From NCBI GenBank assembly GCA_000611775.1, contig KK106981.1, forward strand, positions 10,009,183-10,073,182: a stretch of DNA of 64,000 nt, in the 5' to 3' direction. The notes beneath the pieces were generated by a model. It worked only from the letters and a program-made list of their open reading frames with translations, was not told the DNA's origin and did no database searches. The DNA is from Umbilicaria muhlenbergii. Its lineage: Eukaryota; Ascomycota; Lecanoromycetes; Umbilicariales; Umbilicariaceae. This document shows, in pieces, positions 14,050 to 51,356 of this stretch; the stretch's first letter is position 1, and each line of letters opens with the position of its first letter. The position numbers and the translations under genes are program-made.

Positions 14050-16120
14050 ATGCCTCGTGTTAACCGCAACTCTCTTGGACATCCAAGCGATGTACGCCAG
14101 GGCTCTGCAGGCCCAGGCTACCGCCGCGACGGTACAGAACGCAAGAAACTCGTTCTCTGTTTTGATGGCACTGGCAACAAGTTTCAGGGAACCAGTGCAG
14201 ACAGCAATATATTGAAGATCTATAGAATGCTTGACCGGGAGGATGGCGGATTTCACTACTACCAGGTAACTCCCACTTTGCTTCTTCTGACTTGATGATA
14301 CTCAGTAGAATCGTAAAGCCCGGCATTGGGACGTATGTGACTACGAGGTCTTTGTCTCATACGAGCATGACCGCACGCCTGAATTCATGGTATCAGAAGG
14401 CCAAAGACTCCGCCGTCGGTGATTTTACCATCACTATCACTACAATTGTCGCTCGGCATACTAATACGATTTCCAGGCACGTCGTTCGATGAACATGTGA
14501 TGGGAGCCTACACATTCTTGATGCGCTACTACTCCCCTGGGGACGACATCTTCTTCTTTGGTTTCAGTCGAGGCTCCTATACAGCACGGTTCCTCGCAGA
14601 AATGCTCGACCATGTCGGTCTGCTTAGTGCAGGCAACGAGGAATTGATTCGGTTCGCATGGAAGACCTTTGCCCAATGGCAGCAGAGGCACGGCAAAGGC
14701 CCGGAGGAAGAGAAGAAGAAAAGACAGATGTTCGAATTCATGCGCGGTTTCAGGGAGACTTTCAGCCGCCCTGTAAGACGGATTCGGTTCTTGGGGCTTT
14801 TCGATACAGGCACGGCCCCTCTCCTCTCAAAGAGCCCCTCGTGCTGACCGATATCTAGTGAACAGTGTGCCTAGGTTTGAAAATGCTTGGATGCAGAGGA
14901 GTAAATTCCCTTACACAGCCAGAAGTTCTGCAAAGGTAATTCGGCATGCGGTGGCGATCGATGAAAGACGGGCGAAATTTCGCCAAGATTTAATCTCTCA
15001 GACGAGCATTAAGGAGTCTCACCGCCATCATGACCATCACCTGCGCAAGGGCAGGACCAAGACAAGGCAAGACAAAGGGCAAAATCAGGACGATCAACTG
15101 GCCATTCCAGAGGCGCCTGAACGCTTCAGAAGGCCGAGCCAAGCTCGACCTCTTAACGACGAGGAGCTAACATCGCGCCACCGTCGTAGCTCTCAAAGAG
15201 GTCGTAGCAGATCGGTCAGCCCCGGCAAAGCTGAGAGAAAAAGGTCGGAAAACGATCTCGACTCTATCAGCTCGCAGGTCTCATTACAACCTCCAGACAG
15301 AGCAGCGGAGCAAGATGAAGACTCCGAGGACGAGGAAGCTGCGCAAGACATCGAAGAGATATGGTTTCCCGGCTGTCACGCCGATATTGGCGGAGGGTGG
15401 CCCTTGTCCGCCGGTGAGGAATGCCCTCTGAGCCACTGTCCTCTGGTGTGGATGGTCAGGGAAGCGCAGAAAGCTGGTCTACAGTTTAATTATGAGAAAA
15501 TGAAGCGCCTCCAATGCCACGACGACGACTTCGATATGTTCTCCGCATTGCCCAAGGAGACGCTAGCGGCATTTCATGGTTTCGACATACCCGAGGTTCA
15601 GGTCACTGGGACCCCTGGCTCTGAGAACGGCCCTCGTTTTCCGCAGGGAGGTTTGAACGAGAAAGGGCAGCCGCAGGAGCCGTTCGAACCAATGCCAAAG
15701 TCCGAGTTTTTGGAGACGTTGCACAAAGCAGCTACAAAGGGCAAACTGCATGACTGTCTCGAATTCAACAATGGCCTCCCCTTCATTTCTGTCCTTTCAT
15801 GGAAGATTATGGAATACCTTCCTTTCCGCCGTATGGACTTGCAATCTGATGGGTCGTGGAAGTCAATCTCATGGCCACTCCCCAAGGGCGAAGTGAGGGA
15901 TATACCCGAAGATGCCCGGATCCACCACAGCGCAATCAGGAGAATGGAACACGACGAGAACTACCGACCCGGTAATCTCATCATCGGCGGTGGTGGACGT
16001 GGGATCAAAAAGGCACCTAAGAAATACGGAATCGGGCAGTGGGAAATCTTCAAGGAGGAAGGAAACCCCGTGGGAGAGACCTTTATTCGGAAAGGTCCTT
16101 ATTCCAATGAAAAGATGTAG
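14050..16120 (+). CDS. DUF2235 (Tle1-like) alpha/beta-hydrolase, 636 aa
   Basis: Four exons (14050-14265, 14319-14418, 14477-14809, 14859-16120). The N-terminus after about residue 32 reads [12 protein letters not shown], the start of the DUF2235/T6SS phospholipase effector Tle1-like catalytic domain. The nucleophile elbow is GFSRG (Ser136), followed by [17 protein letters not shown]. The later family blocks [14 protein letters not shown] and [10 protein letters not shown] (His390, Asp392) are present, the latter expected to carry catalytic Asp/His. A charged insertion rich in Ser/Arg/Asp/Glu (about residues 255-380) separates the blocks. Such proteins are widespread in filamentous fungi as presumed cytosolic lipases or esterases with unknown substrate. 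The third intron begins with GC, a GC-AG intron needed to join FDT to VNSVP in frame. No signal peptide. Confidence 0.9.
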
Positions 16121-45136: not shown

Positions 45137-47177
45137 AGTGAGGTTGAGGTACCGCCCTGTAAGCGCTTGATGAAGCTGGCTGAGGGGATAGCGACCTGCG
45201 GGCTATCCTGGCTGCGTACACTCGTTTCCCTAGTACGCTTGCAGTTGGCCCTTAGGCTGGTATCTCAAAGATTCTCATTTGAGTGAGCATGTAGACCAGG
45301 TGCGTTCCAACGAGTGCAGTCTGTGAGTCGAACGTAGAATGTAGAGCCACAGCGCATAAATATGTTGTGAATGATAATTCCGCGCAATTCCACGGGAAGA
45401 CCCAGAAACGTAAATGACTGTGGTGGTGTGAATACTGTTTAAGTTGCTGAAGTCTTGAAGCCTGGCTGATTGTATGTCCCCAGTCCCAGCTCGGTCATGC
45501 CAAGACGACAGAAATCTGCCCCGTCCTCACCCTTTATCGGGAATCGGGTGAGCGCCGCTCTATTGTCGCGCGACGCAGGTGATCAAGGTATCGCGCGATC
45601 CTAGGTGATCCTAGGTGAATTCCCCTACGTGTGGGGGTGAGTTGCTGCCTACGGAGTAATTCCCCGTTTTTCGAAAACCATTACGTATCCTTTTATATAT
45701 CGAGATTAGCATTTCGTTGGATCTACCGTGCTTGAAACCTACGGCTAAGGTAAGATCGAGGCAGCGTGTCAATAAGAAAAAGCGGCAGCGAGGGAAAGGA
45801 GATCTAACATCAACCTCGTTTCTTCGAGCTTTATTGAAAAATTTCTTCCTGTCTTCATCAACCCTCTCTACTCCTGGTTCTTTCCAGCCTTTCGAAGCAT
45901 TTAAATATTGAAATGCGCGCATAGTATTTTTACATTGCATGCTTCCATAGATGCGGCTTACTAACCAATTACTAAGCAAAATTTCACATCAGATCTTGTA
46001 CTCAGGCCGGTTTTACCGGAGTTCCCAAACGAGTGCACCGGAATTGCACTTTTCACGAATATCTTCACAACCTGAACAGGTCTTTAAAATTGCTCAGCTG
46101 CAGAATCATAGAACTAGCGACGCTTGGTTGTCGTACCTTTAGAAGTTTTCCTTTATCTGCTGATACTGTGAAGTTATTCAGCTCTTGAGGTTGAAAGACT
46201 GCCGAACTCCAGAAGTTCGCTTTTTGGGGATTCCGTCAAAACCCGCCTGAGTACACTAGTTATATTATTATACCCGCTATTGAGCACTATCCAGCCGGAC
46301 CTATCTACAATCACAACCTATCCCTAGCCTACTAATAGCAACTACCTTCGAGTTTCCAGGCCAGTTCGTTTGAGTCCTCCAGGCTTGCTGCGTCAGGCCA
46401 GTCCTTTGGTACAAAATAGATACCTACCGCAAAAAAGGCCACTTCGCCTACCTCGAGGCCTGGCGCGAGCCCTGCGCCGCCCTCATGGACGGGCCCGACC
46501 CCCCTCGGGCTCTGCGGCCCCATGCTCAGTCCGTGTTATGATTGGCTTGATCCATACCACATCCGCGGATGACTCAAGGCGTATGCAAGCGGTACCATGC
46601 TCGCAACTATGCAGACGTGCTGTCTCGTCACTAGTCAGGCAGCCGGGCTGGACTCGATTGCCACATTTGAAGCCGCAAAGAGCGGACCCCTCACGGGCAG
46701 GAGCGCCGTCACTTGAAGCCTTGGTGAGGGATTTGTATAGTCTCATTTTGTACTGGTCTACGTGGATCTATACCGAGTCAGTGGCCGATACCAAAAGCGA
46801 GGACATCGCCGATCATGGGCCATCAATTCCGCGACCGTGATCAAGAGCGTCAGTTCCAAGGATGCTTGGTAGTGGTAGGCCCCAATACCAACGACCTGGT
46901 AGTGTAGGTGCTAGTATGCATTGTGAAGTCCTACGGTAGGTGAGAATGAGAATTGATCGCCCATTACATTTGTGCTAGCGCAAGGCCAACACCATGGTTG
47001 GGCTCTAAATTCTCTAGATTCTGGTATGCAACCATCCGGAACTACTCATGGTCGGGGCACATATATGCTGTCGACCTTCACAATCCACAGAAAGGCTGCC
47101 ACAATCTCTCCATAGCCTAAGAAATAGGAGCTTTCTTTTCAGAAGGGTGGACATCTTGAATAGTGGGCTCAAGTAAG
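45137..47177. other. Gene-free interval, 2 kb, with an AT-rich island
   Basis: Divergent promoters of LAS17 (minus) and the A-T-C synthetase (plus). A 12-bp-scale direct duplication (GATCCTAGGT twice) lies near 45598-45618. The part at about 45640-46330 is visibly richer in A and T than its surroundings and holds opposed lysine/phenylalanine-rich frames that end in stops. From 46340 to 46850 composition becomes G/C-rich again. I cannot assign either part to a transposon family. Confidence 0.5.
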
Positions 47178-50100
47178 ATGCTCACTGAACTGCATGGGAA
47201 TCCAATTCCCAAGAGCTCACTGGGGTTGCTCGAGCGCTTCAACGAGACTATTGCACTCTATCCAGACAACCTGGCTTTAGCATGTACCCATCAACCACCA
47301 AACTCCTACGGGATCGAGAGCATCGAGCTCGACAACAGCGAATATCTAAAGCATCCCTATCTCCGATGGTCTTACAATAGCTTAAAGCACGGCGTTGATC
47401 GGCTCTCCGCTGCCATCGCCCGACAGGGAGTCCGAAAGGGCACCCCGTTATTCACTTTCATAGGCAATAATGTCGAATTTGTGCTCTCCATGTGGGCTGC
47501 CCACCAACTTGGATGCATCCATGTCCCTCTTAATGCACGCAATTTCTCGAACTATGCGGAAATCAAGCACATGGTGCAGACTGTGATAGATTATCAGCAG
47601 GCAGCATCTGCTATTGTGTTAGCCGGCAATCCCGAGATTGCGCGAAAATTTGACGATTTACTCTTCACATTCGGCTGCATCAAAATCGTGGTCGGTAAAG
47701 AAATAGAAGGATGGATTCCACTCGCGGACCTGATGATGGGGTCAGATAATAATTACTGTTCGACACAGACCGCCTCAGAGAGTGCTTCACCACAGATCAC
47801 TGTGTTCTTCACTAGTGGCACTACATCTTTGCCCAAGGGTTGCCTCACCAACTGTTCTGACTGGATCACCTCACTCGACGGCTCTCTTGAATCAACTTCC
47901 AAGGGGGACATTGCAGTGGTGCCCGTGTTGAACAATCATGCCTTTGGCTACATCTGTCAGATGGTCGCTTTAACCAGAGGCGCTGCTATAGTGTTCCCCA
48001 GCGACACATTTGCTGCACAAACACTGATGGATGCCATATCAATGGAAAGCTGCACACACATTTCCCTCGTACCCGCTATGATCCACGCTTTCAAAGGGGC
48101 AAGACCTAGCAATGGAAAGAGGATCAAGTCATTGAAACGAGTCACATTTGCGGGCATGCTTTTACAACCAGACGTTCTGCAGCGCTGTCTCGACGACCTT
48201 GGAGTTAGTCACGTGGAAAACTACTACGGAATGACGGAAGGAGCATTTGCTACCACAGGTTACCTCGAGAACGTTGAGGACCTCTTTAAGGGAAATGAGG
48301 TGGCCATTGGCATCCCGTCACGAGGCTCCAAGATACGGATCTGTGCTCCTGACACCAAAATCCCGCTTCCTAGAGACTCTCCTGGCGAACTGCACTTTTC
48401 TGGTAACGCGGTGGTAAAGAAATATATGGGCCGCGACACAGACGATTTTTATGTAGGAGACGACGGATGCCAATGGTTTATCACTGGTGACCAAGCAGTC
48501 TTTAGTGATGAAGGAAAGCTGTACATAGCGGGGAGGTACAAAGACATGATTGTTCGAGCAGGAGAAAACATCTCGCCCGCAGCAATCGAGTCACTACTCA
48601 ATCAAGATAGTGACCTATACGCTCTCAATCCACAGGTGGTAGGCGCGTCAGATCCTATAGCTGGCGAGGTGCCGGTCATAGTCACTAATCGAGAGGTCGA
48701 TCACACAATTCAGCGGTTGATTCGCGATACGATCCTCGCTAAACTTGGTCAGATCCATATCCCAGACGACATCCTCTCCGTCCAATCTCTCGGCCTTCAA
48801 GATTACCCGCATACTACATTAGGAAAGGTCCAAAAGAACAAACTCGCTGCGTTGGTTCGCAAGTACCGCCAAGAGCCCAAGTCCAATGAGCTTAACGAAG
48901 ACATTCGTCACTCAAGCCTCGATAGTACAGTCAAGCGAGTTTGGGCTCGCATGGTTGGCTTGGACATTGATGAGATTGGAATCCACATACGCATCAATGA
49001 CTTTGCCGATAGCATCAATATCCTAAGAGTTCGGGATAAGCTGATGAAAGAGACTGGCAGAAGTGTTTCGCTGGCCAAATGGGCCGCTGCAGATACCGTT
49101 GCGGCAGAAATCGAGCTGCTTCGCCAAGCTGAAACAAATCACTCACATACTTCGGATCAACACCAGCAGCGAGAGGGACCACCGAATGCAAATGACATGG
49201 TGCATCTCACGGACAACCCAGATCTTCTCTCCGTTACAAAAACCCTGGTGGAAGAGACGATCTCTCCATTCGGACTATGCTGGGAAGAAGTTCAGGATAT
49301 AATGCCAACTACAGATTTTGTGCAGACAATCTGCCGAACAAAGTTGGTTGATACTTGGAACAACCGGACTTCAATTCTTACGAACAATGCAGATTCAAAG
49401 GTTGGTAGCATCATGCACAGACTCTACCTTTTGTGATGAACGAATCTGACATGGATAGCAAATGCGTGCGGCAATTGAAACAACTCTGCGTTACAATCCA
49501 GTCATGTTGTCTTTCATTGTTGTGAACACCTCGAAACTCGGTGCTGACTTGGGACTCTACGTAACAATGCGCCAAAGCAAAAAGCTCCTAGATCAGTGTA
49601 TTCTCGACCTTGGAACGGTCGAAACTATGAATGATGTGCGAGATCTGACAATGAATTATCCATACAAAGATCACGCTATGCTCCCAGGTCCACTCTTCCG
49701 AGCAATCATTATTTTCGTAAAGGAGAAGAACTCCGCGGCTATCATCCTCAACGGTTCGTTCTTCAAGTTCAAAGAAACCTAGTCAAGTACACTAATGAAT
49801 ATTATCTAGTGGCTCATGCAGTTCTTGATGCGACGTATTATACCATGTTCAACGAAGATCTTGATAGAGCGCTATCTGGTCAGCAGCTGACTCCCCATAT
49901 TTCGTTCAAAGTCTGGGCAGATTCTTACTATACTTTCCGTAAATCTCCTGCTGCTCGTGCGGCGGTAGACTACAATAAGATCCAACTGCGCGAAATGTTA
50001 CAGCACGAACACGCTCTTTGGCCTCTGTCCACTCCAGAGCTAGAAGTTGCACCTGAACGAGCCCTAATCGACGGTCACTTTACAACGTTTCTTCTCCACA

Positions 50101-50774
50101 TTCTCCCCCTCCGAGATGCACATCCCGCCCTTACGATGCCAGTGATTCTCAAAGCCGCAACCGTTTTACTTTCCATTTACCACACTGGCCACACTCACGC
50201 TCTTTTTGCAGATCTCGCAGCCGTCCGAGCGCAATTTCCCTTCGTCCCGAATTCCTTTTTATCTTTGGGCTCGTTTGACGGTGCCAACGTCGGCGGGCCC
50301 ACTTTCACCTGTATTGTGAATCTCATCTCCTTCCATCCTCAAGAATCAGTGCTCCAATTCCTCTATCGCATCCAGGAGACCCAGATCGACCAGATCAAGC
50401 ACGCCAACGCGCCATGGCACGAGATCATGCGAGAGCTCGGTCCAGGCGCAGAGGCGCTACTTCCTCGAACCACGGACTCGCTTCTGTTCAACTGGATGCC
50501 GGGGCTAGGGGCCATGACGCTGGGCGCGAGCCCGTATACCAGCATGGCCGTCACGCAGACGCACATCCGCACCAAGCTCGGCATGCTGCTCAATGTCGGC
50601 ATGGCTGGCAAGGATGGCAGCCAGGTTGTCTTGCTGCTCCAGGGCGCGATAGCAAATACGTCGACGGAGCGGGTCACGGCCGCTGCGGAGGGCATCAGGA
50701 GGATTGCGACGTGGCTGGTCGATAAGGGGAACTGGGAGGAGCCGGTTGGTGGGTTTCTGCAGTGCTTTGAATGA
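47178..50774 (+). CDS. Monomodular NRPS-like A-T-C synthetase, 1160 aa
   Basis: Three exons (47178-49400, 49459-49753, 49810-50774); the first ATG is at 47178. The adenylation domain (about 1-560) has FFTSGTTSLPKG (A3, Ser213), NYYGMTEGA (A5), FITGD (A7), GRYKDMIVRAGENI (A8) and TLGKVQKNKL (A10), closer to acyl-CoA-ligase-like than to typical amino-acid A domains. The carrier domain follows with the phosphopantetheine Ser612 in NDFADSINILR. The rest is a condensation domain beginning DIMPTTDFVQ. Its HHxxxDG motif reads VAHAVLDA: the second His (842) and the Asp (846) are kept, the first His and the Gly are not. NAPWHEIMREL and LLFNWMPGLG mark its end. It should activate an acid, load it on Ser612 and pass it to a nucleophile. 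No TE, reductase or tailoring gene is next to it, so the substrate and product are unknown. Confidence 0.92.
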
Positions 50775-51356
50775 ACCAGAGATGATGAAGAACTCGAGCT
50801 TGATAAAGTCGCTCTAAAAGCACTTTACCCTTTTGAAGAGCCTCTCAAATTGTGGGATACAGATATTTCAATTTTTGCTATTTTCTTAATATATACTTAT
50901 TATTGTCCTTAGCGCTATCCTCCGCCTGATAAGCTCCCTGCTTGTAGCCATTAGCTATGGCCCTCTCCAGCAGCTTTTCTGCCGGTGTTTCTTTCCAGCC
51001 CATGATCGTATGGAATGGAGGGAAAAGTCGAGAATGAATGTGGTGGTGGAGAAGGTGAAATGCCAGAATTAGCGGCACGCCGCTTCCATTTTTCGCCCAT
51101 CTTAGAGCTTATTTTTGTGAGAGGGAGCGCGTTAAGGGTTGGTAAGCTCGCTCGCTAAAGCGGCAGCATCTGGGTTTCTGTCTTCTTCTGGCGCCAAGAC
51201 CTGGGCTTGGCATTCGGCTATCATTTGACGCTTCGAGGGTTACGTAGTTGTATGAGGGTACGAGTCCTTCTCTCACTTGACCTACCCTTCAACCATCACC
51301 ATTCCCCCAACGTCTTTCTATTCATCACCTCAAATACCAATCAGGAACTCATCAAC
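50775..51356. other. Intergenic, 0.6 kb
   Basis: Between the synthetase stop and the small acidic gene, both on the plus strand. AT-rich around 50860-50910. The minus-strand frame at 50878-51078 has no domain. Confidence 0.55.

What the first reader, a model, noticed from the sequence alone, without database searches (positions are those of the whole stretch)
47178..50774. Stand-alone A-T-C synthetase with an altered HHxxxD motif
Canonical NRPS modules run C-A-T. Here one protein is A-T-C, with no release domain and no cluster partner in view. The A domain has ligase-like motifs (SGTTSLPKG, GKVQKNK). The condensation motif reads VAHAVLDA, keeping the catalytic His and the Asp but losing the first His and the Gly. 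C-terminal condensation domains in fungi often release the product by ester or amide formation, so this enzyme may join a simple acid to an alcohol or amine, alone in the cell. The motifs are seen in the sequence; the reaction is inference.
Basis: partly seen in the sequence, partly recalled or inferred. Interest (0 to 1): 0.72.

Follow-up and report, generated by a model that had tools for sequence, protein, structure and literature searches.

The report
Unclustered single-module A-T-C fungal synthetase
A fungal gene encodes one enzyme that probably activates a simple, perhaps aromatic, acid and joins it to another small molecule; enzymes of this build are already known, so it is a mildly interesting new example.

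Summary
The gene has three exons (47178-49400, 49459-49753, 49810-50774), 1160 aa, each with host-like codon usage. The adenylation domain is certain and CoA-ligase-like, with Asn253 at the EntE Asn235 position, where amino-acid-activating domains carry Asp (recalled). The carrier domain is weak but plausible (Ser612). The C domain is only weakly supported by sequence. Pfam gives nothing and PDB only a chance-level chain, but an HMM from 13 C domains scores 9.3 bits against at most 7.0 in 3000 shuffles, in two collinear pieces, one at HxxxD. A count of matched invariant residues did not discriminate.

The altered motif (AHAVLDA) is not alarming: in AneB, a fungal A-T-C enzyme with QHxxxD, the second His and the Asp are essential and the first position is not. 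The proposed reaction is also known: AstA esterifies a terpene alcohol with benzoate or 4-hydroxybenzoate. The likeliest reading is an AstA/AneB-like single-module ester or amide synthetase. Less usual are the lack of a recognisable cluster and a C domain beyond Pfam's reach. Substrate, acceptor and activity are untested, and no fungal collection was on hand for orthologs. New member of a known kind, modest interest.

The parts
47178..50774 (+). A-T-C gene, 1160 aa in three exons
47178..49400 (+). exon 1 (741 codons): A domain, T domain, start of C region
49401..49458 (+). intron 1, 58 nt, GTTGGT...CTGAC...TAG
   Evidence: contains the in-frame TGA at 49434-49436
49459..49753 (+). exon 2
49754..49809 (+). 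intron 2, 56 nt, GTTCGT...CTAAT...TAG; it splits the Val codon just before the HxxxD motif
49810..50774 (+). exon 3
47346..48863 (+). adenylation domain (about residues 57-562)
   Evidence: PF00501 1.3e-46; best NCBIfam model a long-chain-fatty-acid--CoA ligase subfamily at 193.3 bits, AA-adenyl-dom 127.5 bits, none of the 25 shown reaching its cut-off; feruloyl-CoA synthetase and 4-coumarate--CoA ligase among the best PDB chains
47814..47840 (+). A3 P-loop motif SGTTSLPKG (residues 213-221)
47934..47936 (+). Asn253, aligned with EntE Asn235
   Evidence: may be off by one (Asn252 also present)
48822..48842 (+). A10 motif GKVQKNK with Lys550 (residues 549-555)
48927..49106 (+). thiolation (carrier) domain, residues about 584-643, Ser612 in FADSI as presumed phosphopantetheine site
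   Evidence: PF00550 E 0.0024, below its cut-off
49275..50771 (+). condensation-like region, residues about 700-1160
   Evidence: weak support; negative or undecided:
49812..49832 (+). AHAVLDA (residues 841-847), HxxxD with His842 and Asp846
50325..50447 (+). best profile-matching C-domain stretch (residues 1012-1052, ISFHPQESVLQFLYRIQETQIDQIKHANAPWHEIMRELGPG)

Best explanation
A self-contained single-module synthetase of the AstA/AneB sort. The A domain activates a carboxylic acid with ATP (probably not an alpha-amino acid, plausibly an aryl acid such as benzoate, hydroxybenzoate or cinnamate) and loads it on the phosphopantetheine arm of Ser612. The C-like domain then uses His842, positioned by Asp846, to deprotonate a free alcohol or amine that attacks the thioester, releasing an ester or amide. 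Shown: gene model, A domain with intact motifs, HxxxD motif, no recognised linked cluster. Inferred: acid class, working T domain, C fold, acceptor, activity.
For: Intact A motifs and strong PF00501. CoA-ligase character and Asn at the EntE Asn235 position. Carrier-like domain with Ser612; PF01648 matches at two places in the genome. The C region scores 9.3 bits with a 13-member C-domain HMM, against a best of 7.0 in 3000 shuffles (1515 listed). Among 146 other ORFs only EntF (119.0) and a C-domain fragment of a C(partial)-A-T-R protein (9.5) score higher; the next is 0.8. The two matched pieces are collinear and nearly keep the profile's spacing (186 against 194), though the HxxxD piece alone scores below zero. 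AneB: QHxxxD; H794A and D798A abolish product, Q793A, Q793H and S801A do not (PMC10720950). AstA: A-T-C, benzoate and 4-hydroxybenzoate esters made in vitro (PMC5024094). SubK: A-T-C, predicted to make nicotinate and benzoate esters, which the whole pathway yields in A. nidulans (PMC13107220). One aromatic ammonia-lyase match in the genome.
Against: No Pfam match for the C region at E up to 10, whereas the host fragment that scores 9.5 with my HMM is seen by PF00668 at 5.8e-4. No PDB match better than E 0.16 to an unrelated chain. hhalign probability only 5%, although its score beats 100 of 100 shuffles and 26 of 26 other window frames. A match to 7 of 15 invariant C-domain columns is reached by 18 of 120 shuffles, and H plus D together by 10 of 120. 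No clustered acceptor-making genes recognised. Asn253 is one residue on a 24%-identity alignment. No ortholog, so no test of conservation. In a survey of 38 fungal genomes most monomodular NRPSs lack a complete A-T-C module (PMC2823734, passages), so the architecture is a minority one.
Confidence: 0.58

Rival explanations
1. LpsB-like trans module: the protein loads a non-amino-acid starter and its C domain hands it to a second, unlinked NRPS rather than releasing it. The C(partial)-A-T-R protein on contig C3 would be the only candidate partner seen.
For: LpsB of ergot is A-T-C, loads lysergic acid and passes it to LPSA or LPSC (PMC8902786, passages). A C(partial)-A-T-R protein exists in this genome.
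Against: The two genes are on different contigs (C1 and C3). No multimodular NRPS was found: PF00668 rings once in the genome, in a PKS-like protein, though this count is a lower bound and missed the partial C domain on C3. That partner's own C domain matches only the later part of the model (positions 228-276 of 456), so it seems to lack the half that carries HHxxxD.
Confidence: 0.15
2. The C region is a decaying relic: the A-T half still works (as a ligase or tethered thioester) while condensation is lost.
For: The motif departs at the first His, the Gly and the later Ser; the Pfam model does not recognise it and invariant columns are matched no better than in shuffles.
Against: His and Asp, the two residues shown to matter in AneB, are kept. 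Exons 2 and 3 keep frame and host-like codon usage. Changing the first motif position or the Ser does not abolish AneB activity.
Confidence: 0.17
3. The C-terminal region is another member of the acyltransferase superfamily or an unrelated domain fused to a CoA-ligase-like A-T, with HxxxD by convergence or chance.
For: No Pfam family at all matches it at E up to 10. H plus D fall into register in 10 of 120 shuffles.
Against: The weak match is to C domains, the only family profile tested with filters off, and is collinear at two places. No BAHD, AATase or other transferase model rang (filters on).
Confidence: 0.1

Closest known systems
AstA (Aspergillus oryzae astellolide pathway)
   Same: single A-T-C protein; activates aryl acids; makes an ester with a free alcohol (PMC5024094, passages and sections 8 and 10)
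   Different: AstA is 1338 aa, lies in a sesquiterpene cluster and is recognised by Pfam Condensation (1.3e-12 in its table); ours is 1160 aa, without a recognised cluster, and not recognised. Sequences could not be compared.
AneB / ThmA / FlvI (terpene-amino acid single-module NRPSs)
   Same: single-module, A-T-C (AneB, ThmA); AneB has the first motif His replaced (QHxxxD) and works through the second His and the Asp (PMC10720950, passages and sections 18 and 21)
   Different: these use amino or imino acids (Pro, Trp, dimethylpipecolate) in terpene pathways; our A domain looks like an acyl/aryl-CoA ligase
SubK (subrubine pathway)
   Same: A-T-C predicted to esterify nicotinate, N-formyl-valine or benzoate; subrubine esters 1 and 3 were made in a host carrying the whole pathway (PMC13107220, passages)
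   Different: clustered with alkaloid genes; sequence not compared
LpsB (ergot)
   Same: A-T-C loading a non-amino-acid carboxylic acid (PMC8902786, passages)
   Different: passes the acid to partner NRPSs; no multimodular partner seen here

Membership tests
Fungal single-module A-T-C ester/amide synthetase (AstA/AneB kind) | domain order A-T-C in one protein with nothing after C | tested here: inconclusive
   A met; T below cut-off; C only by weak profile match
Fungal single-module A-T-C ester/amide synthetase (AstA/AneB kind) | catalytic His and Asp of HxxxD present | tested here: met
   His842, Asp846; importance from AneB mutants
Fungal single-module A-T-C ester/amide synthetase (AstA/AneB kind) | condensation by free alcohol or amine, product released | not testable with these tools
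   needs enzyme assay
Fungal single-module A-T-C ester/amide synthetase (AstA/AneB kind) | gene clustered with acceptor-making genes (typical, not defining) | tested here: not met
   families recognised nearest the gene are MRS2-like, WH1, ERCC4 and SEN1; aldo/keto reductase and haem peroxidase lie 15 kb or more away (26 of 58 frames scanned)
NRPS condensation domain (PF00668) | match to family model over its cut-off | tested here: not met
   no hit at E up to 10; own HMM 9.3 bits with filters off
NRPS condensation domain (PF00668) | two-lobed chloramphenicol-acetyltransferase-like fold (recalled) | tested here: inconclusive
   single-sequence model of exon 3 has mean pLDDT 39.3
Carrier protein (PF00550) | match over cut-off with a phosphopantetheine Ser | tested here: inconclusive
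   18.5 bits, cut-off 20.8; Ser612
Amino-acid-activating A domain | Asp at the 235 position (recalled) | tested here: not met
   Asn253 aligns with EntE Asn235; EntF's own stretch is gapped there, so the contrast with Asp is recalled

The most novel reading that the evidence does not exclude
An unclustered A-T-C synthetase that serves general rather than secondary metabolism: a constitutive maker of an aryl or acyl ester or amide of a common cellular alcohol or amine, with a C domain from a lineage too diverged for current models, in a genome where no multimodular NRPS was found.
Probability: 0.15. Interest if true: 0.55.

Novelty: new member of a known kind. Interest (0 to 1): 0.3.

Why it matters
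If active, it would be a compact ester- or amide-forming enzyme whose product must be found by other means than cluster mining, and its diverged C domain would widen the models that currently miss such genes. A survey that screens A domains against CoA-ligase outgroups (as PMC2823734 did) might pass such genes by. It would not change the picture of how single-module A-T-C enzymes work.

Tried and rejected
Relatives of the C region: in the host genome only the gene itself matched (3 of 3 matches); none on plasmids by tblastn at E 1; none in the prokaryote genome collection or viral contigs by pattern plus tblastn (9 and 1 pattern matches, none confirmed). The whole protein likewise found nothing in the prokaryote collection (5 pattern matches, none confirmed). 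The A-T part finds CoA ligases and NRPSs at 23.8-25.4% in the 10 of 1729 plasmid records listed. No fungal genome collection was on hand, so orthology, synteny and C-domain phylogeny against CT and starter domains could not be done.

Structure: exon 3 alone folded without an alignment gave mean pLDDT 39.3 and only helices; rejected as meaningless and not searched. The spliced protein was not folded, because it cannot be read in one frame.

Counting matched invariant residues in an alignment with 13 C domains: not above shuffles; not used as support.

L018 (contig C6), the closest of the 13 host AMP-binding loci compared (26.6% over 503 columns; the genome search scored 14 of 48 candidates), was checked for a following T and C in the 9.9 kb around it. 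By eye none shows among frames of 100 aa or more, and its own frame matches AMP-binding alone.

L007, whose 247-aa frame scored like our C region, is a C-domain fragment (PF00668 5.8e-4, below cut-off) ahead of an A-T-R frame; L009/L037 is A-T-R, like an aminoadipate reductase. They are not A-T-C paralogs; the former served as a positive control.

BAHD transferases (PF02458) match at three places in the genome, but no such model matches our C region.

Full report
Observation. The gene at 47178-50774 does not read through in one frame: exon 1's frame ends in a TGA at 49434-49436. Enumerating splice pairs gave 24 single-stop combinations, 6 of them GT at both donors. The chosen pair, with GT..AG ends and branch-like sites, gives introns 49401-49458 and 49754-49809 and a protein of 1160 aa. 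Codon scores trained on five long window frames are positive in the proposed frame of all three exons (0.131, 0.200, 0.145) and negative in the other forward frames; one reverse frame of exon 2 is at 0.035.

Domains. The A domain is unmistakable: PF00501 at 1.3e-46. Of 152 PDB sequences matched (60 shown), the best are a feruloyl-CoA synthetase, a fatty-acyl-CoA synthase and a 4-coumarate--CoA ligase. Of 102 NCBIfam models matched at E up to 1 (25 shown), a long-chain-fatty-acid--CoA ligase subfamily is best at 193.3 bits, while the amino-acid adenylation model has 127.5; none of the 25 shown reaches its curated cut-off. Aligned with E. coli EntE and EntF, Asn253 falls on EntE Asn235; that this position is Asp in amino-acid-activating domains is recalled (EntF is gapped there). 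Lys550 lies in the A10 motif, aligned with EntE Lys520. Identity to EntE is only 24%, and an off-by-one (Asn252) cannot be excluded. The carrier domain is below Pfam's cut-off (18.5 against 20.8 bits, E 0.0024) but has a Ser in FADSI.

The C region. Pfam lists nothing at E up to 10, and phmmer against PDB lists one unrelated chain at E 0.16. I built an HMM from 13 C domains: one from a host PKS-like protein and twelve plasmid stretches taken from the 40 rows shown of 547 records. With filters off it gives 9.3 bits on the C region alone (7.1 on the whole protein), in two pieces: residues 818-858 around HxxxD (below zero by itself) and 1012-1052 (7.2). They lie in the right order and at nearly the profile's spacing. 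Of 3000 shuffles (1515 listed), none reaches it; the best is 7.0. Of 146 other open frames, two score higher: EntF (119.0) and a 247-aa host frame (9.5); the next is 0.8. That host frame is itself a C-domain fragment, seen by PF00668 at 5.8e-4, so it is a positive control; but Pfam sees it and does not see ours. hhalign gives 28.55, above all 100 shuffles (best 23.94) and all 26 other window frames tried (best 18.98), but with a probability of only 5%. The number of C-domain invariant residues matched in a multiple alignment (7 of 15) is reached by 18 of 120 shuffles, so it says nothing. My judgement is that it is a C domain, much diverged, at roughly 85%.

Surroundings. I scanned 26 of the 58 other window frames of 150 aa or more; 12 had a family over its cut-off. 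Nearest the gene these are an MRS2-like transporter (41-42 kb), a WH1-domain protein (43-45 kb), an ERCC4-domain protein (54.6-55.5 kb) and SEN1 (56-62.5 kb). Further off are haem-peroxidase pieces at 29.6-31.5 kb and an aldo/keto reductase at 23.4-24 kb. Genes made of short exons could have been missed. PF00668 rings once in the host genome, in a protein with KR, carrier and terminal C domains. That search goes exon by exon and is a lower bound; it did not list the partial C domain of the C(partial)-A-T-R protein on contig C3. PF01648 matches at two places, one inside a long frame; which would prime the T domain is not shown. One aromatic ammonia-lyase match lies at C1:10265705, about 0.2 Mb away on the same contig. 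It could supply cinnamate but is not a cluster partner.

What is known. AstA, A-T-C, makes benzoate and 4-hydroxybenzoate esters of a sesquiterpene alcohol in vitro and needs phosphopantetheinylation (PMC5024094, passages and sections 8 and 10). AneB, A-T-C, joins proline to terpene alcohols. It has QHxxxD; H794A and D798A abolish product, while Q793A, Q793H and S801A do not (PMC10720950, passages and sections 18 and 21). SubK, A-T-C, is predicted to make nicotinate and benzoate esters (PMC13107220, passages). LpsB, A-T-C, passes its acid to partner enzymes (PMC8902786, passages). Among monomodular fungal NRPSs a full A-T-C module is a minority: most lack it in a survey of 38 genomes, which also set CoA-ligase-like A domains apart as outgroups (PMC2823734, passages). 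One such protein is listed in Parastagonospora nodorum (PMC4205913, passages). I found no paper on an unclustered enzyme of this kind in six searches, but these searched words in open papers, not sequences.

Verdict. A real, probably functional single-module A-T-C synthetase, best read as AstA/AneB-like: new member of a known kind. The altered motif is not an anomaly. The remaining interest is the lack of a recognised cluster and the diverged C domain.

Noticed in passing
45998-46254: A short repeat with imperfect terminal inverted repeats (25 of the first 35 bases), MITE-like, about 0.9 kb upstream of the gene. One other copy is 91% identical (C2); seven more matches lie elsewhere, six at 68-69% and one partial at 75%.
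   Followed up: partly
46515-46805: A 291-bp stretch 99% identical to one other place in the genome (C1:4197397-4197687), where longer open frames run through it on both strands: perhaps a recent duplication of a gene fragment upstream of the A-T-C gene.
   Followed up: partly
50890-51044 and 45498-45652: Further dispersed repeats on both sides of the gene (one other match at 83%; three others at 75-82%, two of them partial), so it sits in a repeat-bearing pocket.
   Followed up: no
L036:2676-6889 (minus strand): A C(partial)-A-T-R protein: its condensation part matches only model positions 228-276 of PF00668 below cut-off, and no HHxxxD half was seen ahead of it.
   Followed up: partly
L001:1-2817: A PKS-like protein (KR, carrier) ending in a condensation domain with HHIAIDN, the only PF00668 match listed in the genome.
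   Followed up: partly
L035:4502-6040 (minus strand): A ligase-like A domain about 22 kb from the start of contig C6, the nearest relative of our A domain among the host loci compared.
   Followed up: partly
14777-16117: Open frame matching the T6SS Tle1-like catalytic domain family (PF09994, 4.3e-26), unexplored.
   Followed up: no
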